From Oscillatoriales cyanobacterium (GTDB lineage Bacteria > Cyanobacteriota > Cyanobacteriia > Cyanobacteriales > Laspinemataceae): DNA of 49,959 nucleotides. Shown one piece after another: positions 24,208 to 39,610 of the stretch; within the stretch, counting starts at the first letter, position 1; every line of letters starts with the position of its first letter. The DNA is taken from contig JAABRM010000051.1 of the NCBI GenBank assembly GCA_011390955.1, positions 1-49,959 on the forward strand, read 5' to 3'. Position numbers and translations under genes: made by a program. The notes beneath the pieces are model-generated. The model did no database searches and had not been told where the DNA came from. It worked only from the letters and a program-made list of their open reading frames with translations.

Positions 24208-25050
24208 ATGCTAAAAAGTAAAATTGCTCAAAAAATTGCCACAGGATTAGGAATCTTTAGCCTAGGGAGCCTGGGGATTTTCATCACTGCAAGCTTAGTC
24301 TTAAAAGGACAAGTAAGTTTCGCAAATACTCCCGAAAATATCATCGCCGCAGAAGCCAGCAATCAGGCAATTGAATCGATAAGTAATTTTCAACCACCTG
24401 ACCGAGGGGCACCGAATAGAACCGCTGATGGTGGGGCGCGAGGCTGCGGGCAAATGACATTATTAACTCCGGGCGATCGCGGGGCAACCACAATTTCTGG
24501 AAATCCCACATTTTTTTGGTATATTAACCCCACGCCGGACGATCCTACCAAATACCGGCCAATCCAAAAACTCGCCGTGGTTGTGATTAATGAAAAAGAG
24601 GAAGAAATTTATGCACAAATGATCGATGCGCCCAGCGAAGCCAGCATTGTCAGCTTCAAATTACCCGAAAATGAATCGCCAACAATGGAACCGGGCAAAT
24701 GGTACAATATTTTCATCGGTGCTTACAACCAAGAAAACCCGAATATCTACGCACCTTGTAACAGTTTATCCGCTTGGGTACAACGCCAAGTTTTGACCCC
24801 TGAACAACAACAAGAACTGAGTCGTCTCACCACTCCCGAGCAGCAATGGAATTTTTATATCCAACATGAAATTTGGTATGATGCCTTGGCGATATTGGAA
24901 GAACTCCGGCTGCAAAATCCTGAGAATTCAACCCTGAATCAGCAATGGAATCAAATGTTAGAATCCATAGAATTGGGTGAATTAGCGAATCAGCCCTTGC
25001 TTAAATCGCCCCAAATTGTTCGTCATGTAGAGCCAAATTCTCAGTTTTAA
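24208..25050 (+). CDS. Exported DUF928 protein, copy 1
   Basis: 280 residues with a signal peptide (hydrophobic core GLGIFSLGSLGIFITASLVL, cleavage around residue 39). The DUF928 hallmark PPDRGAPNRTADGGARGCG is at residues 63-81, followed by a beta-rich domain with PTFFWYI and a helical end, LTTPEQQWNFYIQHEIWYDA, LAILEELRLQNPE. The family is almost confined to cyanobacteria and has no established biochemical activity; its genes often sit near CHAT, TPS and CHASE2 genes. The mature protein has exactly two cysteines (C80, C184), both conserved in the other copies here, so a disulfide is likely. A GGAGG site precedes the ATG. Confidence 0.9.
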   Translation: MLKSKIAQKIATGLGIFSLGSLGIFITASLVLKGQVSFANTPENIIAAEASNQAIESISNFQPPDRGAPNRTADGGARGCGQMTLLTPGDRGATTISGNPTFFWYINPTPDDPTKYRPIQKLAVVVINEKEEEIYAQMIDAPSEASIVSFKLPENESPTMEPGKWYNIFIGAYNQENPNIYAPCNSLSAWVQRQVLTPEQQQELSRLTTPEQQWNFYIQHEIWYDALAILEELRLQNPENSTLNQQWNQMLESIELGELANQPLLKSPQIVRHVEPNSQF

Positions 25051-25160
25051 TTTGATGAGATTGAAACCGAAATACCTACAATATCTACCGTCCCAATCAG
25101 GGTGTATTCTAAACGGCATCTAAACAAAAATTGGGGCGGTTTCACCTATACTATCTATAT

Positions 25161-25260
25161 AGCGGTTATGGTCTGAATGAAGTACAGAGGTTTTCTGGAT
25201 TCCCGCGAAGGCGGGAATGACAAATTCTTTTTTGTACTTCATAACTATGACAATCGCTAT
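25161..25260. repeat. 100-bp dispersed repeat, second copy
   Basis: Better preserved relative of 441-541, with the inner perfect hairpin ATTCCCGCGAAGGCGGGAAT and outer arms GAAGTACA / TGTACTTC. It sits between DUF928 copies 1 and 2 and might have separated or duplicated them. Confidence 0.7.
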
Positions 25261-25472
25261 AATGCATGACCAATCAATCCTGAAATAAACTAAAAGATGT
25301 TGCCATTGGCCGATGATTTACTACCCTGCGCGGGAACAAAAACATGATCTTTCTCTATGTTTTTCTCTATTGATTACCTAGCCCAGCAAATTGCGGAGCC
25401 AAAACACCCACAGCTATTTTTTTACTCATTCGTTAACTTTCCCTAAAACCTGAAAATTATTGGCTAAATTGT

Positions 25473-26420
25473 ATGTTAAACAAACATCTCAGCTATAGAC
25501 ATTTAGGCGCGATCGCGATCGGTATATGTTTAATTATCTTGCTGCTTAACCCCCGACTCAATATATCCCCAACCTTAGCACAAACATCACCCAACACCAC
25601 CCAGGTCAACCCTAACCAGGTCAATCAAGAAACCACACCGAAAGACTCATCATCATTCAGGGAAGACAATTCAGAAACCCCCGATCTACCTCCCACCAAA
25701 ATTGAGCGAAATAACCCTGTATTTTTTAATCCTCCTCCCCTGGGTGCGCCGCGCCGAACGGCTGATGCTGGCGCCAGAGGAGAATGTCCTATTCCTAGAG
25801 ATAATAAACAGCGTTTGACCCTGCTAATTCCTGAGAATAATTCAGTCAGTATTTCCAGCACAACGGTTAATGAATATCCCACTATTTTATGGTATTTACC
25901 AGAATATTCACTGCCTAAAAATGCAAAAATTAAGGGATTAGTATTGCGTTTAGCTAATTCAGCAGATCGGGAAATCAATAGCACTATCTTGAATTCTCTG
26001 TCTACTCAACCGGGAATCGGCAGGTTTCAATTATCAGAAAGTCAATTCCGTGGACTAAAAACTGGTGAATGGTACAAGGTAGACTTATTCATGTTTAGTG
26101 CGGACAATTTGCTAGATGAAGATAACATCAAGACAAATACTGAAAATTGCGATTATGTACAGGGTTATATTGGTCGCCGTCCGCTGAATAGCCATGAGCA
26201 AGCCGAACTTAATGCAGTGACAAATCCTGAAGAACTGTGGAACTTTTATGCGAAAGAAGTTATCTGGTATGACGCCTTAGCGACTTTAGACCTGATGCGG
26301 CGGGAACAGCCAAACGATGAGATGATTCAAAGAAAATGGTCAGCTTTCTTAGGATTAATTGGACTGGGAGAATTATCTGCGTATCCTCCCATAGAAACCG
26401 GGGAAATTGTGCAGCCTTAA
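25473..26420 (+). CDS. Exported DUF928 protein, copy 2
   Basis: 315 residues. Signal peptide with core AIGICLIILLLN, then about 60 residues rich in Pro, Asn, Thr and Ser, then the family motif PPPLGAPRRTADAGARGECP. The C-terminal helical part (LWNFYAKEVIWYDALATLDL, then RREQPNDEMIQRKW) is strikingly close to copy 3, much closer than to copies 1 and 4, so 2 and 3 are probably a recent tandem duplication. Two cysteines in the mature chain occupy the conserved positions (GECP and ENCDY). The gap to copy 1 is 420 bp, so it likely has its own promoter. Confidence 0.9.
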   Translation: MLNKHLSYRHLGAIAIGICLIILLLNPRLNISPTLAQTSPNTTQVNPNQVNQETTPKDSSSFREDNSETPDLPPTKIERNNPVFFNPPPLGAPRRTADAGARGECPIPRDNKQRLTLLIPENNSVSISSTTVNEYPTILWYLPEYSLPKNAKIKGLVLRLANSADREINSTILNSLSTQPGIGRFQLSESQFRGLKTGEWYKVDLFMFSADNLLDEDNIKTNTENCDYVQGYIGRRPLNSHEQAELNAVTNPEELWNFYAKEVIWYDALATLDLMRREQPNDEMIQRKWSAFLGLIGLGELSAYPPIETGEIVQP

Positions 26421-26503
26421 TTTAGCTGTTTTTCTGTGAAGTTATACTTGATTGGACAAGTGAATAACTGATAAAATTTATGGCGTAAATCCTAAATATA
26501 CCT

Positions 26504-26531
26504 GTAGGGTTGATTCGCGAATCAACCCTAC
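26504..26531. repeat. Perfect 28-bp palindrome without loop
   Basis: GTAGGGTTGATTCG is followed at once by its exact complement CGAATCAACCCTAC. It lies 84 bp after copy 2. It may be a transcription terminator, a protein-binding palindrome or a member of the GTAGGG hairpin family. Confidence 0.8.
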
Positions 26532-26799
26532 ATAGATAACTTGCTATTAAATAATGCGTAGTCTCTGAATGATTTCTGAATGATTATGGTTAAAATGGCT
26601 TAACCTTTAATGATTCTTATGGTTATTATATCCTAGGGATAAACATATATGGCTATACTTAGAATGATCGGCTAAAATAGGCAATACCAGGGTACATATT
26701 TTGGTTGGCTATCCTAAATTATAGTCAGTGGTTATAATTTAGAATAGCGTTATGCTTGTTTGACGGTAAAAACAGCGAATTAACTCTACGCTTAAACCT

Positions 26800-27738
26800 A
26801 TGCTTCAAATAAATACTAGCAAAAAAAAATATATTGTCATTGCCACGCTTATTTGTCTCGCTTTGATTTTTCAGCCATTGGTAAATATATCGGCGACTTC
26901 AGCCCAGTCAATGCCAGATACTTCAGCCGATCGCCCCACCGATACATCAGAGAATCATACATCAAATAACTCAGTCTCAAATCGCTCAAATTCACGGCAG
27001 ACTAATAGCCCTACTGAGTCTACCAATCAAAGCAACGATTCATTCTTTAATCCGCCCAGGAAAGGTGCCCCGAAAAGAACTGCGGATGCGGGGGCACGGG
27101 GGCCATGTCCGGTTTATGGTGCAGCGCAACCTGTGACGCTTTTAATTCCCAATTATCGATCCAGCGATCGCACAATCACGATCGCGGCATCCACGGTTTC
27201 TGACTATCCAACTTTATTATGGTACGTTCCTTCCGTTGTAGGGTTAAACTATCTGGGATTGACTTTAATTGAAGAAGAAACCGCACAGATAATTTATCAA
27301 ACAACCATACCAGTTGCCCAAAAACCGGGAATTATGCGGTGGGAATTACCCAGTAGTGAACCGCCCCTCAAAGTAGGACAATGGTATGAGTGGGTTTTAT
27401 CGGTTTCTAGTTCTGAAAATGCGGAAACAATCTTGAATTCAGCCTGTTATGCTAATGGTTATATTGGCCGTCGGCCTCTGAATATTAGTCAGCAAGAAGA
27501 ATTGGACAATGCTGGCAGTGATTTAGGCAAACTTTGGGACTTTTATGCCAAAGAAGTTATTTGGTATGATGGGTTAGCAACTCTAGACCGGATGCGGCGG
27601 GAAAATCTCGCTAATGAAAATATCAATCAAAAATGGCAAGCCCTCTTAGAATTAAGTGGATTGGCTGAGTTGTCTGGCTACCCCCCAGTAGATATTAATC
27701 AACCATCGGCACAAACTAGATCGGGTAGCGCGGATTAA
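26800..27738 (+). CDS. Exported DUF928 protein, copy 3
   Basis: 312 residues. Signal peptide core ATLICLALIFQPLVNI, a Ser/Asn/Thr-rich linker (residues about 40-85), then the family motif PPRKGAPKRTADAGARGPCP and the beta-rich domain with YPTLLWYVP. The C terminus (LWDFYAKEVIWYDGLATLDR) nearly repeats that of copy 2. Both conserved cysteines are present (GPCP, SACYA). Gap to copy 2 is 380 bp with AT-rich sequence. Confidence 0.9.
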   Translation: MLQINTSKKKYIVIATLICLALIFQPLVNISATSAQSMPDTSADRPTDTSENHTSNNSVSNRSNSRQTNSPTESTNQSNDSFFNPPRKGAPKRTADAGARGPCPVYGAAQPVTLLIPNYRSSDRTITIAASTVSDYPTLLWYVPSVVGLNYLGLTLIEEETAQIIYQTTIPVAQKPGIMRWELPSSEPPLKVGQWYEWVLSVSSSENAETILNSACYANGYIGRRPLNISQQEELDNAGSDLGKLWDFYAKEVIWYDGLATLDRMRRENLANENINQKWQALLELSGLAELSGYPPVDINQPSAQTRSGSAD

Positions 27739-28573
27739 GCCAAAAAAAATTCTGGCAGATTGGCAGTGATTCCGGTATTCTACGCCAACATCGATCCACG
27801 GATCTGGCGCGATTTGCCCCGAAGCGCGATCGCGATCGCCTTGCGGAGCAATATCGCCTCGCTTCACGTCCCTGTTTCTTTCCCTTCCCAAAAACTACAC
27901 AATTCCACTTTACTCTAATCTACAAAGGGGCATCGTTCTAATCTCCGAGGTAATTTTCTCTCACCAAAGCAAAAAACATCGGCAAAACCGGCGAAAGTGG
28001 GACATAGAAAGTGGGAAATATTTCTGGCTGAAGATTGGGTTCAAGATTGATGGTTCACCAGCGAAACCCGCTCAAACATAATAAGTTCTGGCATTTCCTG
28101 AGTATTTTTCTTTTCCAGAATTGTTCTCAGAGTAGCTTTACTCTAAAGAAAGTTGGATCGATTGCCGACTAATTGAAAAAGTGATATAATAAATATTTAG
28201 ATAGCGAACATGATTTGGGCTAGTTAATCGATAGTGAATTTTCAGAAATACTGAAAATTAAGGTTAAAAAACATTCCGCGATCTTACGGAGATTAAAGAA
28301 TCTTGCCACTTTATCGGTGCTAAACTGCCTCAAATCAGTTAAATGTTAGCTCAGTATTTATATTGATAAGCGAAAAAATTGCTTTGATAGCAATGCTTGA
28401 AGGAAACAGTTTAAAGTCAATGAATCCCCCTCTGGATGAATACCAGATTCACAGGTAGAAGGATTCACCAGGGAGATGATGTCTGGCCTTTATCTCTCTG
28501 ACATATATATGACGCGGGTGCTTGAGGACGACTTTTCCGGTTGACATGAATTGATCGAACAAGGAGTGATCGA
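27739..28573. other. 835-bp gene-free region between DUF928 copies 3 and 4
   Basis: No gene or strong repeat is seen. The right half is AT rich, and an AAGGAG ribosome site precedes copy 4 at 28561-28566. The length suggests a promoter region for the copy 4 / CHAT transcription unit. Confidence 0.4.
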
Positions 28574-29407
28574 ATGATGTTGAAGAAAAAATCACTGCAA
28601 CAAATCGTTAATATTTCTGCGGGTCTTTTGCTGGGTCTGTTAATGAGTCCACGCTTTTTATCTCCCACGCCAGTTTTGGCCCAATCCGCTTCTAGTTATC
28701 AAGACTCATCCGGGTCTTGGCTGGTGAGTGAAAGCTTTAGCCCGCCGAGTCGGGGCGCCCCCGCAAGAGCCGCTGATGGTGGTTCCCGGGGCTGTGGTTG
28801 GCAGCCCGGGCAAAAGTTACTGACGCCGATGATTCCCTCGGATGCGATGGCTTTTACGGTGTCTGAGTATCCCAGTTTCTTTTGGTATGTACCCTCACCT
28901 AGTGCCTTAGACCAGAGTGCGGGGGAAAACGCCGCCACAGTTAGATTTGTGCTGATTGATGATAACCAAAATATTGTGTATCAAAAAAAATTATCGGCTC
29001 CTTCATCAGGGATTATGAGTCATAAATTGTCCCCTGACGAGGCGCCAGCTTTGGCCGAAAATAAACAGTATCGTTGGTTGGTGTCGATGGTTTGCGACAG
29101 CGAGGATCCGAGTGCGAATCCATTGGTGGATGGTTGGGTGGAACGGATTCCCGTGAGTGAGGAACTGCAAGCGGAATTGGACAAGGCAACGGAGAGCGAT
29201 CGCGCCTCGATTTATGCCCGCGCCGGAATTTGGCATGAAGCTTTGAGCGGTCTGGCTTACCTGCTTTACCAACATCCTGATGATGCCACGATTCTCTCCC
29301 GGTGGAGTGAATTTTTACGCTCAGTCAATTTGGGTCAGTTCACTCAAGAACCCCTGATCGGGCCAGAAGTGATTGTCAAACCAGAACCAGCGACTGAGAT
29401 GAGTTAA
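28574..29407 (+). CDS. Exported DUF928 protein, copy 4, first gene of the CHAT operon
   Basis: 277 residues. Signal peptide (NISAGLLLGLLMSPRFLS, cleavage near VLAQ), then PPSRGAPARAADGGSRGCGW, YPSFFWYVP, and a shortened helical end (IYARAGIWHEALSGLAYLL). The two conserved cysteines are at RGCG and MVCD. It is more like copy 1 (GG and GCG in the motif) than copies 2 and 3. Only 48 bp separate it from the CHAT gene, so this copy is the one most clearly tied to it in transcription. Confidence 0.9.
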   Translation: MMLKKKSLQQIVNISAGLLLGLLMSPRFLSPTPVLAQSASSYQDSSGSWLVSESFSPPSRGAPARAADGGSRGCGWQPGQKLLTPMIPSDAMAFTVSEYPSFFWYVPSPSALDQSAGENAATVRFVLIDDNQNIVYQKKLSAPSSGIMSHKLSPDEAPALAENKQYRWLVSMVCDSEDPSANPLVDGWVERIPVSEELQAELDKATESDRASIYARAGIWHEALSGLAYLLYQHPDDATILSRWSEFLRSVNLGQFTQEPLIGPEVIVKPEPATEMS

Positions 29408-29455
29408 ATCCATGAATTGAATATATATTAAATAGATTTCGAGGGTAAACCAGAT

Positions 29456-32400
29456 ATGTCGTTACGGGTAGTCAGAAATCACGGCCTTCTCGTTGCCGCA
29501 ATTGGGTTGATTCCGGGGATGATGTGGCAGTCAGTGATGGCTCAAACCATTGTTCCCGGTGGAGATACCGGCACTCAGGTTATCCGTAACGGCGATCGCC
29601 TCGATATCCAAGGCGGCGCCATCTCAGGGGATGGCAGCAATTTATTTCATACCTTTGAGCAATTTAATGTCCCCACGGGAGAAACCGCTAACTTTCTGTC
29701 TACTCCCCAAATTCAAAATATCTTAGGTCAAGTGGTCGGGGGCAATGCCTCGATCCTTAATGGCATTCTCCAGGTGACTGGCAGCAATGCCAATTTATTT
29801 TTACTCAACCCAGCGGGAATTGTCTTTGGCCCGAACGCTACACTGAATGTCCCAGGGGCTTTTACCGCTACTACCGCCAACGGGGTGGGTTTTAATGGGG
29901 GCTGGTTTGGTGGCACCACTAATGATTATCAAGCCCTAGTGGGCAGTCCTAACAGCTTTGTTTTTGCTACCTCTGCTACATCACAGCCGGGGATTGTGTT
30001 TAATGCGGGAAATCTGGCGGTGGGCGATCGCCAATCCCTGAATTTAATTGGTGGGATGACCGTCAATACGGGGTCACTTTCTGCCCCAGGGGGACAAATT
30101 ACCATTGCCGCCGTTCCCGGAGAAAGAGAAAATTTAGTCTTAGTCCGCATCAATCAATCCGGGATGCTGCTGAGTTTGGATATCTTACCGTCGGAATGGA
30201 CTGAAGCGAACCAGAATCCATTCTTAAATTCATCTTTAAATCAAATTAATCCCCTAACATTACCGGAATTGCTGACCGGCGGTACGGTCAGTGATGCCAC
30301 CAATGTCCGTATAAACCCTGATGGCACCGTTTCTCTGACGGGTTCTAATGTCCGTATTTCTACGGAACCAGGCACAACCATTGTTACAGGTCAAGTATCC
30401 GTATCTACGGAGCAAGGTGCTGGGGGCAGTGTGACGGCGATCGGGGACAAAGTAGGAGTCATTGGCGCCCAAATCGATGCATCCGGTGGTCTGGGGGGCG
30501 GTGATGTGAGAATTGGCGGAGATTATCAGGGTAATGGGCTGTTACCCACTGCTGCCAGAACTTTTGTCAGTAATGATGCGATGATTCGGGCCGATGCGAG
30601 TTCCGGCAATGGCGGTCGGGTGATTGTTTGGGCTGATGAATTAACGGGATTTTATGGCCAAATTTCTGCCCGGGGTGGGGAGAATTTCGGTAATGGTGGC
30701 TTTGCGGAAGTTTCCGGCAAAGAAAACCTGATTTTTAATGGCTTGGTTGATTTAACTGCCCCCAATGGGATTTGGGGCACTTTGCTACTCGATCCCTGGA
30801 AAATTACAATTTCCAATGGGGCAGATAATCCCCCAGAGTTGGCGAATGATTTCGTGAATGTTTTAGAGAATACTCCTGGGAATGAAGATATTACAATTAG
30901 TGTTGCCACCCTGGAAAATCAATCAGGGGATATTTTGATTCAGGCTAATAACGCGATCGAGATTCTTGATGATATTTCTTTAACATTTAATCAACCTGGT
31001 TCAATTACTTTTACTGCCGAGGATAAAATTACGATCGCCCCTGGAGTTTCTTTAACCTTTAACTCCGCTAGTTCGGTGAAATTTATTGCCGATTCAGATA
31101 ACCAAAGTGGCGGTGCTTTTTCGATGGATCCGACGCAATCCATCACCGCTTCTGGAGCTAATGTGGAAATTTCGGGATCCCAGATTACCGTAGGAAAGAT
31201 CGATACTTCGGCGACAGGACAAAATTCAGGGGGATCGATTAGCCTATCCGCTTTGGCCGGAAATATTACTACAGGTGAACTGAATTCTAGTTCCGGGGGT
31301 CAAGGGATTGGGGGCAATATTACCCTGGATGTAAGAGAGGGAACGGGAAATATTAATATTCAAGGGACTTTGGATTCGAGTTCTGGCACCGCTGGGGCTG
31401 GGAATATTCGCCTCAGTACCGATGGTGGGAGTATTATTCTGGGCAGTGGCAGCGATATTATTGCCGACCAAGTTGATGTGAATTCAAGTGCTACAGGTCT
31501 GGGTCACGGGGGCAATATTACCCTGGAAGTGAGAGAAGGAACGGGAATTATTGACACCCGCAATGCGACTTTAAATTCTTCGGTGAACAATGGCGAAGGT
31601 GGAACGATTGCCCTGAGTACCACGGGCGGGAATATTTTGACGGGCGCACTGGATTCTAGCGCTACAGGTACGGGGACAGCAGGGGCAATTAGCCTAAGCG
31701 TGACAGGGGAAACGGGAAGAATTGACACCACTGCCGGGAATTTAAATGCTAGTGCTACCGCTGGGAATGGCAGCCCAATTACATTAGAGACGAATGGCGG
31801 GAATATTACTACGGGTGATTTGGATGCGAGTGCTCGGGGTCAAGGCACTGCCGGAGATATTAATATTGATGCGGTGACTGGATCGGCGAATGTCACTGGT
31901 CCGGTGTCCAGTAATAATTTGACGGTGAGAGGTTCGGAGATTGATTTTACTGGGGGAGACAATTCTGTAGAAGGAACGGGAAATTTACAGTTGCAATCCG
32001 CAGATAACGATCGAGATATCGCGATCGCCGTCCCCAATCCGGATCAAGATGCTTTGGATTTATCCGCTACTGATTTAGCTGCGATCGCCCCTGGTTTTCA
32101 GGAGATGATTATTGGTGGCCCGGATACCGATGGCGATCGCACCATTACCCTGGGAGATGCGGCCACTTTTCGATCTCCCGTTCACATTCAAGGAGGAGAA
32201 ACCCTAGTCCTGCAAAACCCAGAAAGTACCTGGGATCGGGACGAAGATAATAATGGCACCGTGACTAATCCTGACGTGACGTTTTCCAGTATTGAGACTG
32301 TCGAAGGTGGCAACAATAGTCCTGAGAACAATAGTCCTGAGAACAATAGTCCTGAGAACAATAGTCCTGAGAACAATAATCCTGAGAACAATAATCCTGA

Positions 32401-34381
32401 GAACAATAGTCCTGAGAACAACACTGGCAACAATACTGGCAGCAGTGGTAATAATGCCAGTAACCCTGGAGTTCCTGCGGGGGCGGCGCCAGTCCAGGAA
32501 AGCCCGCCATTGGATCTGCAATTTGTCTTGGATCAAGATGCCAACGACTCCTCAGAAACCACTGATTCTGCCTCACCGACCCAGGTTTCTCAGGCAAGAC
32601 CAGAAACAACCAACACTTCACAATCCACTGATGCTTCGGCAGCTAACCCGGTTTCAGCCCCAACACTGGAAACCGCTACAACTCCAGCCCTCCCGCAACC
32701 GGCAACCGAATCCACCGTGGTTTCTGAACCCACTTCTGTGAGTACGACTCCAGAAATTCAAGCACCAACCACCGAGGCGATCGCCCCACCAACCGCCGAA
32801 GCGATCGCGCCACCAACCATCGAAGCGATCGCGCCACCAACCATCGAAGCGATCGCGCCACCGATCGCCGAGGCGATCGCGCCACCAACCATCGAAGCGA
32901 TCGCGCAAATCCCATCAGAAACCGCCCCAGTTGTAGGGGCAAACAATCCAGAATCTAGCGGACAAAATCAAGCAACTCAAGCCAATATTTCCACCCAAGA
33001 AACTTCCCCGGATTTTGTGTTTAACTCAGGGTCACAAATTGATTCAATTTACCCATTTACTAACTCTCGTGAACCTCAAATCTCTATCGACAATTCCCTC
33101 AGTCTGAGCCTTCAAGCACCGAGACTGGACTTGGGCAACCGGCAAGAACTGGAACAACTGATTAACAGTGGTCAACTAGAACAAGCAGTGCAAATGGGCG
33201 ATCGCTTATTTACCGAGGAATTTTGGGATTACTTACGCCCAGATATTAAACGGTCTTATCTGTCGTTTGCCACGATGCAAACTCAGCTACAACAGATTGC
33301 CAAAACTACCGGGAATCAAACGGCGATCGTCTATATTTTTCTGCGCCAAAATAACTTAGATTTAATCTTAGTTCCCCCGGTTGGCAACCCCATATACAAG
33401 AATATCCCGGTAGAGTCTAAAGAATTTATCTTAAACAAAGTTGCGGAATTTCAAACCGAAATCACCGATCCAATTTATCGCCAAACTAACACTTATTTAT
33501 CATCGGCAAAAGAACTTTATCAATTGACGATCGCGCCTTTAGACGATGACTTAAAAAAGTTAGAAACTGACACCATTATTTTTAGTGTCGATGCGGGATT
33601 GCGAACCTTACCTTTAGCCGCATTAAATGATGGGGAAAAATTTCTCGTGGAAAAATATAGTCTCAGTCTGACCCCTAGTTTACATTTATTGGATCCGCGT
33701 TACCGAGATATTCATAATTCCCGCGTCTTAGCAATGGGAATCTCAGAATTTCCTGACAAAAATCCTTTGCCAGCAGTGCCCGTAGAACTGGAAACGATCG
33801 CCAAACAGTGGTCAGTGGAAAGCGTATTCGGTCAATCGGCTACTTTGGCAAATTTACGCCGGTTGCGATCGAAAGCCAATCCCAGCATCATTCATATCGC
33901 TACCCATGCCCAATTTAAATCCGGTCAACTGAACAACTCATACATCCAGCTATCGGATCAACCCCTACACTTAGATCAAATCCCAGAGTTAAATTGGAAT
34001 AATCCCCCAGTAGAATTATTAGTTCTCAGTGCCTGCCGCACGGCGATCGGCGACCAAGAAACCGAATATGGTTTTGCGGGGTTGGCGGTGCAATCTGGGG
34101 TAAAATCAGCTTTGGCCAGTCTCTGGTATGCCAATGATGCCGCGACTTTGGGGCTAATGAGCGAATTTTACGCCCATTTGCGATCGACTCCGATCAAAGC
34201 CGAAGGACTCCGACAAGCTCAAATTGCCATGCTTCAGGGTGAGTTATCGTTAACAGATGGTTTTTTGGTGGGCAGTTTCGGAAAAGTAGAACTGCCACAA
34301 GCATTAAAAGAACTAGGGAATCGCAACTTAAGCCATCCTTATTATTGGTCTGGATTTACCATGATCGGTAGTCCTTGGTAA
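29456..34381 (+). CDS. TPS-domain secreted protein with C-terminal CHAT protease domain
   Basis: 1641 residues. Order: signal peptide (1-29, ending VMAQ); haemagglutinin-type TPS domain (about 30-170) with the NLFLLNPAGIVFG motif that directs two-partner secretion; a long repetitive beta-helix (about 170-900, many GGNI/TGxL steps); a disordered Asn/Pro linker with 15-bp tandem repeats (954-988); a Pro/Thr-rich part with EAIAPPT repeats (1107-1150); and a CHAT domain (about 1290-1641). CHAT is a caspase-like cysteine protease fold; the catalytic pair is visible as H1484 in IIHIATHAQF and C1527 in LLVLSACRTA. So it is probably an active protease delivered to the cell surface or outside. The partner outer-membrane pore (ShlB/FhaC type) is not encoded in this window. 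Confidence 0.92.
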   Translation: MSLRVVRNHGLLVAAIGLIPGMMWQSVMAQTIVPGGDTGTQVIRNGDRLDIQGGAISGDGSNLFHTFEQFNVPTGETANFLSTPQIQNILGQVVGGNASILNGILQVTGSNANLFLLNPAGIVFGPNATLNVPGAFTATTANGVGFNGGWFGGTTNDYQALVGSPNSFVFATSATSQPGIVFNAGNLAVGDRQSLNLIGGMTVNTGSLSAPGGQITIAAVPGERENLVLVRINQSGMLLSLDILPSEWTEANQNPFLNSSLNQINPLTLPELLTGGTVSDATNVRINPDGTVSLTGSNVRISTEPGTTIVTGQVSVSTEQGAGGSVTAIGDKVGVIGAQIDASGGLGGGDVRIGGDYQGNGLLPTAARTFVSNDAMIRADASSGNGGRVIVWADELTGFYGQISARGGENFGNGGFAEVSGKENLIFNGLVDLTAPNGIWGTLLLDPWKITISNGADNPPELANDFVNVLENTPGNEDITISVATLENQSGDILIQANNAIEILDDISLTFNQPGSITFTAEDKITIAPGVSLTFNSASSVKFIADSDNQSGGAFSMDPTQSITASGANVEISGSQITVGKIDTSATGQNSGGSISLSALAGNITTGELNSSSGGQGIGGNITLDVREGTGNINIQGTLDSSSGTAGAGNIRLSTDGGSIILGSGSDIIADQVDVNSSATGLGHGGNITLEVREGTGIIDTRNATLNSSVNNGEGGTIALSTTGGNILTGALDSSATGTGTAGAISLSVTGETGRIDTTAGNLNASATAGNGSPITLETNGGNITTGDLDASARGQGTAGDINIDAVTGSANVTGPVSSNNLTVRGSEIDFTGGDNSVEGTGNLQLQSADNDRDIAIAVPNPDQDALDLSATDLAAIAPGFQEMIIGGPDTDGDRTITLGDAATFRSPVHIQGGETLVLQNPESTWDRDEDNNGTVTNPDVTFSSIETVEGGNNSPENNSPENNSPENNSPENNNPENNNPENNSPENNTGNNTGSSGNNASNPGVPAGAAPVQESPPLDLQFVLDQDANDSSETTDSASPTQVSQARPETTNTSQSTDASAANPVSAPTLETATTPALPQPATESTVVSEPTSVSTTPEIQAPTTEAIAPPTAEAIAPPTIEAIAPPTIEAIAPPIAEAIAPPTIEAIAQIPSETAPVVGANNPESSGQNQATQANISTQETSPDFVFNSGSQIDSIYPFTNSREPQISIDNSLSLSLQAPRLDLGNRQELEQLINSGQLEQAVQMGDRLFTEEFWDYLRPDIKRSYLSFATMQTQLQQIAKTTGNQTAIVYIFLRQNNLDLILVPPVGNPIYKNIPVESKEFILNKVAEFQTEITDPIYRQTNTYLSSAKELYQLTIAPLDDDLKKLETDTIIFSVDAGLRTLPLAALNDGEKFLVEKYSLSLTPSLHLLDPRYRDIHNSRVLAMGISEFPDKNPLPAVPVELETIAKQWSVESVFGQSATLANLRRLRSKANPSIIHIATHAQFKSGQLNNSYIQLSDQPLHLDQIPELNWNNPPVELLVLSACRTAIGDQETEYGFAGLAVQSGVKSALASLWYANDAATLGLMSEFYAHLRSTPIKAEGLRQAQIAMLQGELSLTDGFLVGSFGKVELPQALKELGNRNLSHPYYWSGFTMIGSPW
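32315..32419 (+). repeat. 15-bp in-frame tandem repeat (NSPEN units)
   Basis: Seven 15-bp units encode NSPEN or NNPEN pentapeptides in the linker of the CHAT protein. The DNA units are nearly identical, so the number is likely to vary between strains by slippage without shifting the frame. Confidence 0.9.
32774..32905 (+). repeat. 24-bp in-frame tandem repeat, each unit with a HIP1 octamer
   Basis: Six units encode EAIAPPT(I/A). In each the Ala-Ile-Ala codons are written as GCGATCGC, the HIP1 octamer, spaced 24 bp apart. The rigid Pro-rich sequence probably spans the stalk between the beta-helix and the CHAT domain. Confidence 0.9.
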
Positions 34382-34505
34382 TTTTCGCTTGCCCTTTGTC
34401 TACCGCACCCTTGAGCTTGGGTTGGCTAAGTTCGATCGGGACATTTAAAATGGCTAGTCGGTAGATCATTTTTTGGTGGGCGATGCCCACTACGATGTGG
34501 GCAAA

Positions 34506-36677
34506 ATGTGGGCAAAATTTAAACAAAAAATTCGACGGGCGAAAAAAACATTGTTCATTGCACCCGCGATCGCCGCATTGGTGATTGGAGTGCGAATGAC
34601 CGGTTTATTACAATTATTAGAATTATCAGCCCTGGATCAATTTTTTCTCTTGCGTCCCGATTCCCCCCCGGACGATCGCATTGTCATTGTGGGCGTTGAC
34701 GAACAAGATTTACGTTATGTGGGAAAATGGCCAATTCCTGATGGGGTATTGGCTGAGTTACTCAAAAAAGTCAGACAGCAACAACCTAAAGCCATTGGTC
34801 TGGACATTTATCGAGATATCCCCGTACAACCGGGACATGAAAAACTGGTGCAAGTTTTTCAAACCACGCCCAATTTGATTGGAATTAGCAAAATAGTCGG
34901 CGAACAGGTTGACCAGATTCCGGCGCCTCCAGCCCTCAGCGAACGAAATCAATTTGCGGCCAATGATTTACCTGCCGATGTAGATGGCAAGGTGCGTCGG
35001 GCTTTTTTATATCTGAGCGATAAGAATGACGAGAATGTCTTTAGTTTGGGATTTCAACTCGCTTTAATGTATCTCAAAGATTTGGACATTCACCCCAAAA
35101 TGATCGATGAGAAAAAATTTAAAATTCAACTCGGTCAAGCAATCTTTACTCCTTTTCGGCGGAATGATGGAGGTTATGCTAGAGCCGCTGATGAAGGCTA
35201 TCAAATTTTGCTGAATTATCGCGGCCCGGAGGGTTTTTTTCAGACCGTATCCCTTAGAGATGTTTTACATGACAAAATTTCGCCCACTTTAATGCGCGAT
35301 CGCATTGTCATTATTGGTTCCACTGCTATCAGCGTCAAAGATGTTTTATTCACTCCTTATAGTACCAGGCTGTTTGATTCTTTACCCCACCTCATGCCCG
35401 GAGTCGAAGTCCATGCCAATATCACCAGTCATTTAATTAGTGCGGCTTTAGACGGGCGATCGCTGCTGAAAACTTGGCCAGAAGCGATCGAATGGCTATG
35501 GATTTTCCTATGGTCGATCGTTGGCGCAACTGTAACTTGTCAATGGCGTTCTGACGGCAACCTGAATAAAATATTAGTCGGCCAAACCAGCATCAGAATT
35601 CCCATCACTTCCCTGACCTTGATCATCTTATGTTACATCGCATTTTTATTCCATTGGTGGATTCCCCTAGTCACCCCTCTAATGACCCTCATTGGTTCCA
35701 CCACCTTTAAAATTGGCTATACTCTATGGGAAAACCTCCTACTTTCTCATAAACAACTGGAAGAATATGCTCGAACTCTAGAAATCAAAGTTGAAGAACG
35801 TACCCAAGAATTAAAAGATAAAAATCATATCCTGGAACAAACCCTGCAAAAACTTCAAGCAGCGCAAAAGCAAATAATTGCCCAAGAAAAGTTGGCTTAT
35901 CTCGGTTCTCTCACCGCTGGCATTGCCCATGAAATTAGAAATCCTTTAAACTTTATTAACAACTTTGCCCAGATTTCCGGCGAACTCACGGAAGAATTAG
36001 TAGAAGAAATTAAAGCCGTATTTGAGGAAACCGAAAATGACAGCGTAGACCCAGACGACTTGGAAAATATTTACGATATGCTGACAGATTTGAAAGATAG
36101 CGTGGCGGATATCGAAAGTCATGGCAAAAGAATTGAAACCATTATTCAGAGTATGATGATGCATACTCCCACCCAAAAAGGTCATCGAGAACTGACAAAC
36201 ATCAATCTGTTATTATCCGAATCCATTGAACTCGCTTACAATAGTCATTTAGCCAAAGAAAATCGGTGTGCCATCACCCTGGAAACTAATTACGATGAGG
36301 CGATCGGGGAAATCGATATCATTCCTCAAGATATGGCCAGGGCATTTGTGAATATCATTAAAAATGCTTGTGATGCCGTCAACGATCGCCAAAAAGCCCT
36401 AGGGGAAAAATTTCAGCCGATGATTTCAGTCAAAACCCTTGCATCAGATGAAACAGTAAAAATCTCCATCCAGGACAATGGCATTGGCATCCCTCAAGAA
36501 ATTGTTGAGCAAATTTTTAATCCCTTTTTTACCACCAAGCCCCCTGGAGAGGGCACAGGTTTAGGCTTATCTCTCACCTATGATACGATTGTTGGGGAAC
36601 ATCAAGGAGACATCAAAGTAAAAAATCATCCAGACAGTTTGACAGAATTTATCATTGTGTTGCCAAAAAAACCCTAG
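34506..36677 (+). CDS. CHASE2-domain sensor histidine kinase
   Basis: 723 residues. N-terminal membrane helix (FIAPAIAALVIGVRM), then an extracytoplasmic CHASE2 sensor domain (about 30-330) with LDQFFLLRPDSPPDDRIVIV, PKAIGLDIYRD and the RIVIIGSTAISVKD end, a bundle of membrane helices (about 335-410), a coiled coil, HisKA with the phospho-acceptor in GIAHEIRNPLNF (H475), and HATPase with NGIGIPQEIVEQIFNPFFTT and GEGTGLGLS. CHASE2 senses unknown extracellular signals. ATG 34506 is preferred over TTG 34473 because the basic residues and helix follow at once. It follows the CHAT gene by about 120 bp and precedes the receiver-kinase by 48 bp, so it is likely co-transcribed with both. Confidence 0.9.
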   Translation: MWAKFKQKIRRAKKTLFIAPAIAALVIGVRMTGLLQLLELSALDQFFLLRPDSPPDDRIVIVGVDEQDLRYVGKWPIPDGVLAELLKKVRQQQPKAIGLDIYRDIPVQPGHEKLVQVFQTTPNLIGISKIVGEQVDQIPAPPALSERNQFAANDLPADVDGKVRRAFLYLSDKNDENVFSLGFQLALMYLKDLDIHPKMIDEKKFKIQLGQAIFTPFRRNDGGYARAADEGYQILLNYRGPEGFFQTVSLRDVLHDKISPTLMRDRIVIIGSTAISVKDVLFTPYSTRLFDSLPHLMPGVEVHANITSHLISAALDGRSLLKTWPEAIEWLWIFLWSIVGATVTCQWRSDGNLNKILVGQTSIRIPITSLTLIILCYIAFLFHWWIPLVTPLMTLIGSTTFKIGYTLWENLLLSHKQLEEYARTLEIKVEERTQELKDKNHILEQTLQKLQAAQKQIIAQEKLAYLGSLTAGIAHEIRNPLNFINNFAQISGELTEELVEEIKAVFEETENDSVDPDDLENIYDMLTDLKDSVADIESHGKRIETIIQSMMMHTPTQKGHRELTNINLLLSESIELAYNSHLAKENRCAITLETNYDEAIGEIDIIPQDMARAFVNIIKNACDAVNDRQKALGEKFQPMISVKTLASDETVKISIQDNGIGIPQEIVEQIFNPFFTTKPPGEGTGLGLSLTYDTIVGEHQGDIKVKNHPDSLTEFIIVLPKKP

Positions 36678-36725
36678 CAAAAATACCTGTTAGGAATTGA
36701 AACAATAACTAATCGGAGCAATTCC

Positions 36726-37973
36726 ATGATTCCTAAAATTTTATTCGTAGACGATGAACCGGCTTTATCTCGCTTAATCAAAACCAAATATAGAAGTAAA
36801 GTCAAAGCCAAAGAATTGGAATTATTTTTTGCGGAAAATGGCCTAGCCGCTTTAAATTTCCTCAAAGAAAGTTTAGTTCATGTCGTGATTACTGACATTA
36901 ATATGCCAGAAATGAATGGCCTGGTTTTACTGGATAAAATTAAATCCCTGAATTTGCAAATCCCAACCATCGTCTTATCCGCTTATGGGGATATGCAAAA
37001 TATTCGAGCCGCCATGAATCGAGGCGCCTTTGATTTTTTGAACAAACCCATTGACTTTAACGATCTAGAAATCACCATAGAAAGAGCCTTAGAACATTTA
37101 AAACAAATTCAAGAACACCAACAGCAACTCCAAAAAACCCAAACTCAACTGATTCAAAGTGAAAAAATGTCTAGCCTCGGTGAGCTAGTAGCCGGAGTCG
37201 CTCACGAAATCAATAACCCGGTGGGTTTTCTCACCGGGAATATTACCATCGCTGAAGACTATTTCACGGAAATCGTCGAACTCCTGAATCTCTACGAGGA
37301 GAAAATCCCAAATCCGGGGGAGGAAATCATCCACAAAATGCAAGAGATCGATCTGGATGTTATGAAGGACGATATTCCTGAACTCATTTCATCCATGCGA
37401 GAAGGAACCGATCGCATTCTTTCCTTAAGTACCTCCTTAAGAACCTTTTCGCGATCGGATATTTCTGCCAAAAGTCCCTTTAACATCCACGATGGCATTG
37501 ATAGCACCCTGCGAATTTTAAAGCACCGTCTCAAAGCCAATGAATTTCGTCCCGATATTCACATCATCAAAAACTACGGAGACCTGCCCAGCGTAGAATG
37601 TTATCCAGGGCAACTCAATCAAGTCTTTATGAATATTTTTGCCAATGGGATTGATGCGTTAGATCAGTCTAGTACGGGTCAATCCTATGAAGAAATTCTG
37701 GAAAATCCCAAGACGATTACCATTCGCACGGAAGTCAAACCCGAAAATGGTACAGTCATTATCGGTATTCGAGACAATGGCCTTGGAATTCCCGAAAATG
37801 TCAAAGAGCATATTTTTGAATATTTATTCACCACCAAGCCCGTTGGCAAAGGCACTGGTTTAGGTTTGTCTATTTCTTATCAAATCATTGTGGAAAAACA
37901 CGCCGGGGAAATTAGCTGTGTTTCCGTACCAGGAGAGGGCACCGAGTTCATTATCGAGATTCCCATTCAATAA
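36726..37973 (+). CDS. Receiver-histidine kinase hybrid (response regulator N-terminal)
   Basis: 415 residues. Receiver domain at 1-125 with FVDDEP and the phospho-acceptor Asp in VVITDINMPEMNG (D57), IVLSAYGD and FLNKPID; a short coiled coil; HisKA with GVAHEINNPVGF (H160); HATPase with NGLGIPENVKEHIFEYLFTT and GKGTGLGLS. There is no membrane segment or DNA-binding domain, so it is a cytoplasmic relay: it probably receives phosphate from the CHASE2 kinase at D57, which then controls its own kinase. The final output regulator is not in the window. GGAG precedes the ATG. Confidence 0.92.
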   Translation: MIPKILFVDDEPALSRLIKTKYRSKVKAKELELFFAENGLAALNFLKESLVHVVITDINMPEMNGLVLLDKIKSLNLQIPTIVLSAYGDMQNIRAAMNRGAFDFLNKPIDFNDLEITIERALEHLKQIQEHQQQLQKTQTQLIQSEKMSSLGELVAGVAHEINNPVGFLTGNITIAEDYFTEIVELLNLYEEKIPNPGEEIIHKMQEIDLDVMKDDIPELISSMREGTDRILSLSTSLRTFSRSDISAKSPFNIHDGIDSTLRILKHRLKANEFRPDIHIIKNYGDLPSVECYPGQLNQVFMNIFANGIDALDQSSTGQSYEEILENPKTITIRTEVKPENGTVIIGIRDNGLGIPENVKEHIFEYLFTTKPVGKGTGLGLSISYQIIVEKHAGEISCVSVPGEGTEFIIEIPIQ

Positions 37974-38272: not shown

Positions 38273-39610
38273 TCATTTCGCGAATAGAAAAGCATTATCC
38301 CAAACATAATCAATCGCAGCTTTAGCATCATCTAAAGGTAAGACTTGACAACATCCTTGCTGGTCATAATTCAGCAGGGGAACTTCACGAATATTCTCTG
38401 GTTCTTCACTGTCTTTCATCACCTGACCGCGAATGGTTTGTAAATTTTGTAAAGGCCCTTGAATATCAAAATCAATTTTTGTATCAAATTTCTCATTCAT
38501 CCATTGCTCAATCATGTCATCTAATGCTTCAGGCGTCATGGGTTCTGGATTCGTTAATAGGTGATAGTAAACCAGAATAATCTCCTTACACTCTTCTTCT
38601 TCCGCCGCATCAATCAAGGATTGAAACACCCCCACATTAATCGCTAAATTCCTAAAAAATAAAGTCTCCGTGACATTTTTTTGAAATTGAATCTGTTTAT
38701 TTTTGTAGCTGTTGTACTGTTTAAACGCAAAACCTCCTAGGGTGACTAACAGAGACAAGCTGGCAATCAATGCTGGCATAATATTTTTCACGTCTTCTTC
38801 TTTAGCCTGTACATACTCTAAGCTTTCTGGGCCAAAAATAATAAATAAAATTACCGCAATAATTAAAATTATTTCTGGTAAAACTTTTAATATAATTGAA
38901 ATACCTGCCCCAATTGCCGGAATGCCAAACATGAGTCGATCTTTCCATGTCATGCTGATTTGCACGTTAGGAAAAAGAAACTCTAAATCAAACTTAGGTA
39001 CATTTTTATAGAGGTAAACATAAGTTTTTCCGGGAATAAAATTAAGCTTATTAAGCTTACCAGATTTTTTCTGCCGGTCAAAGTATTCTCGATCTTTAAA
39101 TTTAATCAATAAAGCTATTCGCTCAAAAACATCAACCGTTTTTGCGATTTTTTTAAAAAATTTCTTAGTGTAAACAATTTTATAAATATCTCCGCGACAA
39201 TAACAGACCATCTGCTGAAAATCATTAAAATTGACGGAAGTTTTTAGTTCGATTAATGATTTTTCCGCAAAAGCTCTTTCTAAGCTATCGCCGGATAAGG
39301 GAAAATAATTGGCTCTTTTCAGTAGTTTGGTGAAATCCTGAACCAGTTCAGTTTCCATTGCCGCAAGCTGAGTGGGGTTGGGCTGGATCCGTGACTTGGT
39401 TTCCGTATCCGGATCGAACGGGGCGTAGTTATCTTTTAAAGTTTCCAGGGTATGATGGAAATGAAAATGATAATAGGCTGATAAAATCTGGCAAAATTCG
39501 CGAAACTTTGGCACATCAGCCGGAGATAATTTACCATCTTCAATACATAATTCGATTAGGTCGGTGCGCCGATAGGGAATAAACGCTTCCCGGTCTTCAT
39601 AGACTGCCAT
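38273..39610 (-). CDS. TMEM143/DUF3754 family membrane protein
   Basis: 445 residues. The start EDREAFIPYRRTDLIELCIE, the centre NFNDFQQMVCYCRG and KVYVY-like LYKNVPKFDLEFLFPNVQI, and two pairs of membrane helices (PAIGAGISIILKVLPEIILI and IIAVILFIIFG; then IMPALIASLSLLVTLGGFAF) match the TMEM143/DUF3754 family. The family is found in cyanobacteria and eukaryotic organelles and has no known biochemical role. The gene is convergent with the receiver-kinase and stands alone. Confidence 0.82.
   Translation of the reverse strand: MAVYEDREAFIPYRRTDLIELCIEDGKLSPADVPKFREFCQILSAYYHFHFHHTLETLKDNYAPFDPDTETKSRIQPNPTQLAAMETELVQDFTKLLKRANYFPLSGDSLERAFAEKSLIELKTSVNFNDFQQMVCYCRGDIYKIVYTKKFFKKIAKTVDVFERIALLIKFKDREYFDRQKKSGKLNKLNFIPGKTYVYLYKNVPKFDLEFLFPNVQISMTWKDRLMFGIPAIGAGISIILKVLPEIILIIAVILFIIFGPESLEYVQAKEEDVKNIMPALIASLSLLVTLGGFAFKQYNSYKNKQIQFQKNVTETLFFRNLAINVGVFQSLIDAAEEEECKEIILVYYHLLTNPEPMTPEALDDMIEQWMNEKFDTKIDFDIQGPLQNLQTIRGQVMKDSEEPENIREVPLLNYDQQGCCQVLPLDDAKAAIDYVWDNAFLFAK

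What the first reader, a model, noticed from the sequence alone, without database searches (positions are those of the whole stretch)
24208..37973. DUF928 x4 – secreted CHAT protease – CHASE2 kinase – receiver kinase cluster
Four exported paralogues of a family with no known activity precede a 1641-residue protein that joins a two-partner-secretion domain to a caspase-like CHAT domain with intact His/Cys (H1484, C1527), followed by a sensor kinase and a receiver-kinase. All genes share one strand and the last four are closely spaced. I infer an exported or surface-displayed protease with DUF928 proteins as chaperones, inhibitors or substrates, and its own signalling. The co-occurrence of these families in cyanobacteria is known to me in outline, but no function has been established.
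Basis: partly seen in the sequence, partly recalled or inferred. Interest (0 to 1): 0.75.

Follow-up and report, generated by a model that had tools for sequence, protein, structure and literature searches.

The report
DUF928–CHASE2 receptor module with protease
A cyanobacterial gene cluster pairs exported proteins of unknown function (DUF928) with a membrane receptor (CHASE2) and an exported caspase-like protease; the DUF928-receptor pairing recurs across cyanobacteria, which suggests an undescribed signalling module and a testable answer to what CHASE2 receptors sense.

Summary
In detail: four DUF928 genes, a TPS-CHAT protein with His1484/Cys1527, a CHASE2 histidine kinase and a receiver-kinase, all on one strand. 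In 14 cyanobacterial genomes, 47 of 72 DUF928 loci have CHASE2 within 5 kb (1.2 expected), 32 have CHAT (3.4 expected), 27 have TPS within 8 kb (1.9 expected). Of 106 genomes, all 86 with DUF928 have CHASE2. The conserved core is DUF928-CHASE2, with TPR-CHAT and TPS as frequent additions. TPS-CHAT fusions are usually alone: DUF928 is near 2 of 44. The first three DUF928 copies are a separate clade. CHASE2 outputs vary while the DUF928 pairing stays. DUF928 has a nearly invariant arginine in a coil linker (77 of 80; pLDDT 62-74), tandemly repeated in some members. Best reading: DUF928 is the periplasmic partner of CHASE2 receptors, acted on by the exported CHAT protease. Linkage and co-inheritance are shown; binding and cleavage are inferred.

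The parts
24208..25050 (+). DUF928-1, 280 aa; clade with DUF928-2 and -3
   Evidence: PF06051 132.9 bits; tree
25473..26420 (+). DUF928-2, 315 aa
   Evidence: PF06051 107.2 bits; tree
26800..27738 (+). DUF928-3, 312 aa
   Evidence: PF06051 130.1 bits; tree
28574..29407 (+). DUF928-4, 277 aa, other lineage, 48 bp before the TPS-CHAT gene; conserved Arg72 in the linker; Cys74 and Cys174
   Evidence: PF06051 189.9 bits; alignment; residues checked; AF2 model pLDDT 80.5; gaps
29456..34381 (+). TPS-CHAT protein, 1641 aa: export-like N-terminus, TPS domain 32-237, repeats and low-complexity spacer, CHAT 1350-1639 (H1484, C1527, D1561)
   Evidence: Pfam, TIGR01901, CHAT alignment, N-terminus, tandem repeats at 32312-32421 and 32763-32906
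34506..36677 (+). CHASE2 receptor histidine kinase (ORF open from TTG 34473)
   Evidence: CHASE2 247.6 bits, HisKA, HATPase_c; CHASE2 AF2 model pLDDT 95.1
36726..37973 (+). Receiver-histidine kinase, 415 aa
   Evidence: Response_reg 84.2 bits, HATPase_c 76.8 bits

Best explanation
The cluster is one of many copies of a cyanobacterial surface-signalling module. SHOWN: DUF928 genes sit beside CHASE2 receptor genes far more often than chance, often with an exported-like CHAT protease and a TPS protein, and DUF928 and its local CHASE2 are inherited together while the receptor's cytoplasmic output varies. INFERRED: DUF928 is a periplasmic Ig-like partner (co-receptor or ligand carrier) of the CHASE2 sensor domain. 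The exported CHAT protease senses something outside, possibly through its TPR or TPS part, and cuts or engages the DUF928 linker at its conserved arginine. The changed DUF928 then switches CHASE2, and the signal leaves through the attached kinase (here passed to the receiver-kinase), cyclase, c-di-GMP enzyme or cytoplasmic caspase-like domain.
For: Linkage: CHASE2 within 5 kb of 47 of 72 DUF928 loci, 1.24 expected (46 of 69 without genome G033; 38 of 57 also without the own genome); CHAT 32 of 72, 3.4 expected; TPS 27 of 72, 1.88 expected. Presence: of 106 class genomes 86 have DUF928 and all 86 have CHASE2; 12 have CHASE2 only, 8 neither; copy numbers correlate, Spearman 0.88, 0.77 after genome size (from 77, 78). 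Co-inheritance: distances of DUF928 and its local CHASE2 r=0.607, 0 of 3000 within-genome permutations; CHAT r=0.479, 1 of 3000; TPS r=0.236, 2 of 3000. Receptor output type changes 7 times on the DUF928 tree against 17.5 in shuffles (38 rows, 0 of 500 as low). The same parts as separate genes elsewhere in this genome, TPS>CHAT>DUF928>CHASE2-HK>RR-HK, with DUF928 between CHAT and CHASE2 instead of first (L008). Export: N-terminal hydrophobic segment in 70 of 82 DUF928 and 28 of 33 unfused CHAT, against 175 of 817 other ORFs; a cysteine pair, both in 68 of 80. Linker Arg in 77 of 80 and in all 23 tandem units read in four proteins. CHAT Asp1561 36 of 36; in separase an Asp recognises P1 Arg (passage of PMC9729208).
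Against: 15 of 72 DUF928 loci have none of the three families near, and 18 have neither CHASE2 nor CHAT. 69 of 119 CHASE2 genes have no DUF928 within 5 kb. Joint duplication alone could give correlated trees. No binding or cleavage was tested. Craspase CHAT proteases cut nonconserved sites (A|S, L|D, M|K; abstract and passages of PMC11106740), so CHAT is not an Arg protease in general. That D1561 corresponds to separase D2151 is my inference; no alignment to separase was made. The conserved Arg could be structural: it lies beside the conserved Cys74. The linker is conserved also in DUF928 without CHAT nearby. TPS-CHAT fusions are mostly unlinked (2 of 44 with DUF928), and of three TPS-CHAT ORFs in the DUF928 set only the window's has a hydrophobic N-terminus.
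Confidence: 0.5

Rival explanations
1. DUF928 is the periplasmic partner of CHASE2, but CHAT and TPS are separate passengers: surface proteins co-regulated by the receptor rather than acting on DUF928.
For: CHASE2 linkage is stronger than CHAT linkage (47 vs 32 of 72); 22 of 72 loci have CHASE2 without CHAT; the DUF928-CHASE2 distance correlation is highest; CHAT is on the opposite strand in 15 of 32.
Against: CHAT is still about nine times above expectation and its distances track those of DUF928; the four proteins with five or more linker units all sit directly after a same-strand CHAT gene, though three are close relatives.
Confidence: 0.3
2. DUF928 is a chaperone, pilot or inhibitor for export of the TPS/CHAT proteins; the repeated linker is a binding peptide for TPR or for the pore.
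For: Adjacency of DUF928 with CHAT and TPS; DUF928 is exported-like; repeated linkers are typical of short binding motifs (inference; repeats).
Against: 18 of 72 DUF928 loci have CHASE2 but neither CHAT nor TPS near, which an export chaperone does not explain; 42 of 44 loci with a TPS-CHAT ORF show no DUF928 in the DNA held.
Confidence: 0.13
3. No direct mechanism: surface-signalling genes cluster because they duplicate and spread together in large cyanobacterial genomes.
For: All families are multi-copy; counts correlate with genome size (0.66 and 0.79).
Against: Partial correlation 0.77 after size; 0 of 3000 within-genome permutations; repeated gene order.
Confidence: 0.07

Closest known systems
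EACC2-caspase systems with CHASE2, ECF sigma and DUF1822 (PMC8195603; section 9 read)
   Same: Some loci found here (L039, L118) resemble this arrangement: caspase-like CHAT domain fused to CHASE2 beside DUF1822 and, in L118, a protein with sigma region 4. Whether their N-terminal part is EACC2 was not tested.
   Different: A term search of that paper found no DUF928. The window's CHASE2 protein has a histidine kinase and no caspase module, and its protease is an exported-like TPS-CHAT.
Cluster of two WD40 genes, one hypothetical gene, CHASE2 and DUF928 in one of 7 surveyed cyanobacteria (PMC5587647; two passages read)
   Same: DUF928 in one cluster with CHASE2.
   Different: Reported as found in one species only; here it is general. 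No CHAT or TPS is mentioned in the passages read.
TPR-CHAT of Craspase and its substrate Csx30 (PMC9729208, PMC11106740; passages read)
   Same: CHAT protease with a dedicated substrate protein; the His/Cys dyad.
   Different: Craspase is RNA-guided; the CHATs here mostly carry export-like N-termini and lie beside receptor genes; no TPR found in the window protein.
CHASE2 diguanylate cyclase Dgc2 of Leptolyngbya (PMC10581220; passages read)
   Same: CHASE2 receptor with a signalling output; the paper states that CHASE2 ligands are unknown.
   Different: No DUF928 or CHAT in that paper by term search.

Membership tests
DUF928 (PF06051) | Score above Pfam cut-off | tested here: met
   All four, 107-190 bits against 26
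CHAT peptidase (PF12770) | CHAT domain with His/Cys dyad | tested here: met
   214.7 bits; H1484 and C1527, 36 of 36 in the alignment
CHAT peptidase (PF12770) | Proteolytic activity | not testable with these tools
   No assay
Two-partner secretion exoprotein (TpsA) | TPS domain near the N-terminus after an export-like segment | tested here: met
   PF05860 135.6 bits, residues 32-237; TIGR01901; hydrophobic segment from residue 10, a crude measure
Two-partner secretion exoprotein (TpsA) | Cognate TpsB (ShlB/FhaC) transporter | tested here: inconclusive
   Two ShlB proteins on contigs C42 and C46; a third POTRA_2 match on C9 is an Omp85 protein with ShlB under the cut-off; none on the window's contig; pairing unknown
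CHASE2 sensor histidine kinase | CHASE2 + HisKA + HATPase_c | tested here: met
EACC2-caspase system | Caspase module fused to the CHASE2 protein, with DUF1822/ECF sigma | tested here: not met
   The window's CHASE2 protein has only CHASE2 and kinase domains; no DUF1822 or sigma among the 10 window proteins given to Pfam, not all ORFs of the window
Craspase-type TPR-CHAT | TPR repeats before CHAT | tested here: not met
   No TPR hit at E<=0.01 in the 1641-aa protein

The most novel reading that the evidence does not exclude
DUF928 is the long-sought proteinaceous input of CHASE2 receptors: an exported caspase-like CHAT protease cuts its linker after the conserved arginine (repeated up to seven times in some members), turning extracellular proteolysis into cytoplasmic phosphorelay, cyclic-nucleotide, c-di-GMP or cytoplasmic protease signals, a bacterial analogue of protease-activated receptors.
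Probability: 0.2. Interest if true: 0.9.

Novelty: new variant of a known kind. Interest (0 to 1): 0.63.

Why it matters
CHASE2 is a receptor domain with unknown ligands (stated in PMC10581220, passages), and DUF928 is a Pfam family of unknown function. In the 106 genomes sampled DUF928 was never found without CHASE2 (86 of 86), and it sits within 5 kb of CHASE2 at 47 of 72 loci. That turns both unknowns into one testable pair. If the exported CHAT protease is part of it, cyanobacteria have a surface proteolysis-to-signalling relay with swappable outputs.

Tried and rejected
Fold searches: the DUF928 model (Ig-like sandwich plus C-terminal helices) had only weak PDB matches (best E 4.7e-4 with query TM 0.24), so no function was taken from fold. 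The CHASE2 model (pLDDT 95.1) had no match at E<=0.001. Profiles against PDB sequences: DUF928 best E 0.45, CHASE2 none up to E 1; CHAT best 8tl0, a CHAT domain-containing protein (E 0.0055). Defence origin: PADLOC gave only a weak CHAT-region hit (BovA, E 7.9e-4) and a TPR hit (seven proteins), so an anti-phage reading was not pursued. The linker motif was sought in the other proteins of the loci: no convincing hit (best E 2.0). Promoter and terminator scans were not informative. My first pattern missed the dyad of the CHAT-CHASE2 fusions; corrected, His is in 13 of 13 and Cys in 12 of 13. The CHAT genome search listed only part of its rows, so CHAT positions come from my own profiles on fetched loci and only per-genome totals.

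Rows dropped: L073-L075 (genome G033, near-duplicates of G045) in the distance tests but not in the 72-locus counts; DUF928 under 200 aa in the tree (80 of 82 kept); 78 of 80 DUF928 in the structure alignment (L018 and L073 left out); 50 of 54 CHASE2 in theirs. In the shuffle test, 'other', 'short' and 'N-ext' receptors were left out (38 of 52 labelled rows used); the CHAT-linked label changed 19 times against 26.4, with 1 of 500 shuffles as low. Expected numbers assume random placement and rounded genome sizes and ignore contig ends.

Full report
Observation. The window is contig C54 of a 7.12-Mb cyanobacterial genome; the nearest named relative found by the CHAT domain is Planktothricoides sp. 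SR001 (88% identity). The seven genes are present as described. DUF928-4, TPS-CHAT, CHASE2-HK and RR-HK are separated by 48, 124 and 48 bp; the gaps after the first three DUF928 genes are 422, 379 and 835 bp. On a tree of 80 DUF928 proteins the first three form one supported clade and the fourth lies elsewhere. So the operon-like unit is DUF928-4 to RR-HK, with a separate DUF928 triplet upstream.

Is the linkage general? In the own genome, 16 DUF928 genes lie at 12 loci. Annotated loci show CHASE2>DUF928, CHAT>DUF928>CHASE2, TPS>DUF928>CHASE2 and, in L008, TPS>CHAT>DUF928>CHASE2-HK>RR-HK, the window's parts as separate genes with DUF928 in the middle; two own loci have a lone DUF928 (L005, L009). 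In a sample of 59 genomes of the phylum, DUF928 occurs in 14, all of the window's class. Around their 72 DUF928 loci: CHASE2 within 5 kb in 47 (1.24 expected by random placement), CHAT within 5 kb in 32 (3.4 expected) and TPS within 8 kb in 27 (1.88 expected). Sixteen loci have all three, 54 have CHASE2 or CHAT, 15 have none of the three. In the other direction, 50 of 119 CHASE2 genes have DUF928 within 5 kb. In a wider draw of 106 genomes of the class, DUF928 occurs in 86, every one with CHASE2; 12 have CHASE2 only and 8 neither; copy numbers correlate at 0.88, or 0.77 after genome size.

Is it more than neighbourhood? Pairwise distances of DUF928 domains correlate with those of their local CHASE2 domains (r 0.607, 48 pairs; 0 of 3000 permutations that reshuffle partners only within each genome; r 0.42 among DUF928 less than 50% identical), less with CHAT (0.479, 30 pairs, 1 of 3000) and TPS (0.236, 27 pairs, 2 of 3000). 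Receptor output type and gene orientation change 7 and 9 times on the DUF928 tree, against 17.5 and 19.9 in shuffles. This shows joint inheritance, not contact. CHASE2 proteins next to DUF928 carry histidine kinase, adenylate/guanylate cyclase, GGDEF-EAL, Ser/Thr kinase or an N-terminal caspase-like CHAT domain; about ten short ones have no output that I could name. The fused CHAT keeps His in 13 of 13 and Cys in 12 of 13 and comes with DUF1822 in the two loci tested (L039, L118) and with a sigma-region-4 protein in L118, resembling the EACC2 systems of PMC8195603.

The proteins. DUF928 and unfused CHAT carry N-terminal hydrophobic segments in 70 of 82 and 28 of 33 cases, TPS 20 of 27, TPS-CHAT 1 of 3 (the window's), against 175 of 817 for other ORFs of the loci; this is a crude measure, not a signal-peptide prediction. 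DUF928 has a co-occurring cysteine pair (both in 68 of 80, neither in 6, one in 6), as expected in an oxidising compartment. The AF2 model has an Ig-like sandwich and C-terminal helices (81-260 well predicted except 111-120) after a poorly predicted N-terminus. In the linker a motif ending Gly-Gly-x-Arg has Arg in 77 of 80; the stretch is coil, pLDDT 62 to 74. In four proteins the unit is repeated 5 to 7 times, Arg kept in all 23 units read; four others have two copies. All four follow a same-strand CHAT gene, but three are close relatives, so the hypergeometric 7e-4 overstates independence. All 36 CHAT domains of loci L001-L076 and the window that my profile found keep His, Cys and the Asp at 1561. 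PMC9729208 says that separase D2151 reads P1 Arg and is Lys in Craspase (passage); I infer, untested, that D1561 is the same position.

Against. The scan with this protein's CHAT domain gave 78 loci: 8 hold DUF928 and 9 hold CHASE2. Of the 44 with a TPS-CHAT ORF only L099 and L130 hold DUF928; 37 of 78 loci have full flanks, and 5 of these hold DUF928. So the fusion is a guest in the module here. Craspases cut nonconserved sites. No complex could be modelled with the tools at hand.

Literature. DUF928 as a term is in one paper of the open-access library searched, which reports one cluster with CHASE2 and two WD40 genes in one species and cites an acid-stress response of a Synechocystis DUF928 protein, sll1891 (passages; no further paper for sll1891). 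'CHAT domain' with CHASE2 and cyanobacteria, or with hemagglutinin and cyanobacteria, gave none. A metacaspase-CHASE2 protein is reported in Trichodesmium (passage of PMC3501461). Within these searches the DUF928-CHASE2-CHAT module is not described; subscription papers were not searched.

Verdict. A real, widespread, apparently undescribed module, with the mechanism inferred: DUF928 as periplasmic partner of CHASE2 (about 0.8 summed over readings that hold it), CHAT acting on DUF928 (about 0.5), cleavage at the conserved Arg (about 0.2).

Noticed in passing
L018:3709-9177 and L031:4371-9131: Single ORFs joining a family-2 glycosyltransferase, a TPS domain and a CHAT domain; an odd N-terminus for an exported protein.
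   Followed up: partly
window 34557-35513 (CHASE2 domain): AF2 model with pLDDT 95.1 has no PDB match at E<=0.001, so CHASE2 may be an unsolved fold.
   Followed up: partly
L039:5029-17235: 212-aa gene without Pfam hit, DUF1822, CHAT-CHASE2, DUF928, then convergent TPR-CHAT, ShlB transporter and TPS: a near-complete version of the module with its own secretion pore, and CHAT domains in both an exported-like protein and the receptor.
   Followed up: partly
L072 and L075, CHAT genes: N-terminus reads like a twin-arginine signal (SRRSLLG), suggesting export of a folded protease; signal type recalled, not tested. My hydrophobicity measure counted both as lacking a segment.
   Followed up: no
window 38273-39610 (-): A DUF3754 gene lies between RR-HK and the WD40 gene; it is not listed in L077 of Planktothricoides sp. 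SR001, where the following genes have the same lengths.
   Followed up: no
L001:8747-9142, L007:12561-12854, L013:258-569, L016:3452-3889: Short repeats that translate as runs like VVCCLLF or TTNNQQP occur beside several of these loci in the own genome.
   Followed up: no
window 32312-32421 and 32763-32906: 15-bp and 24-bp tandem repeats form the low-complexity spacer of the TPS-CHAT protein.
   Followed up: no
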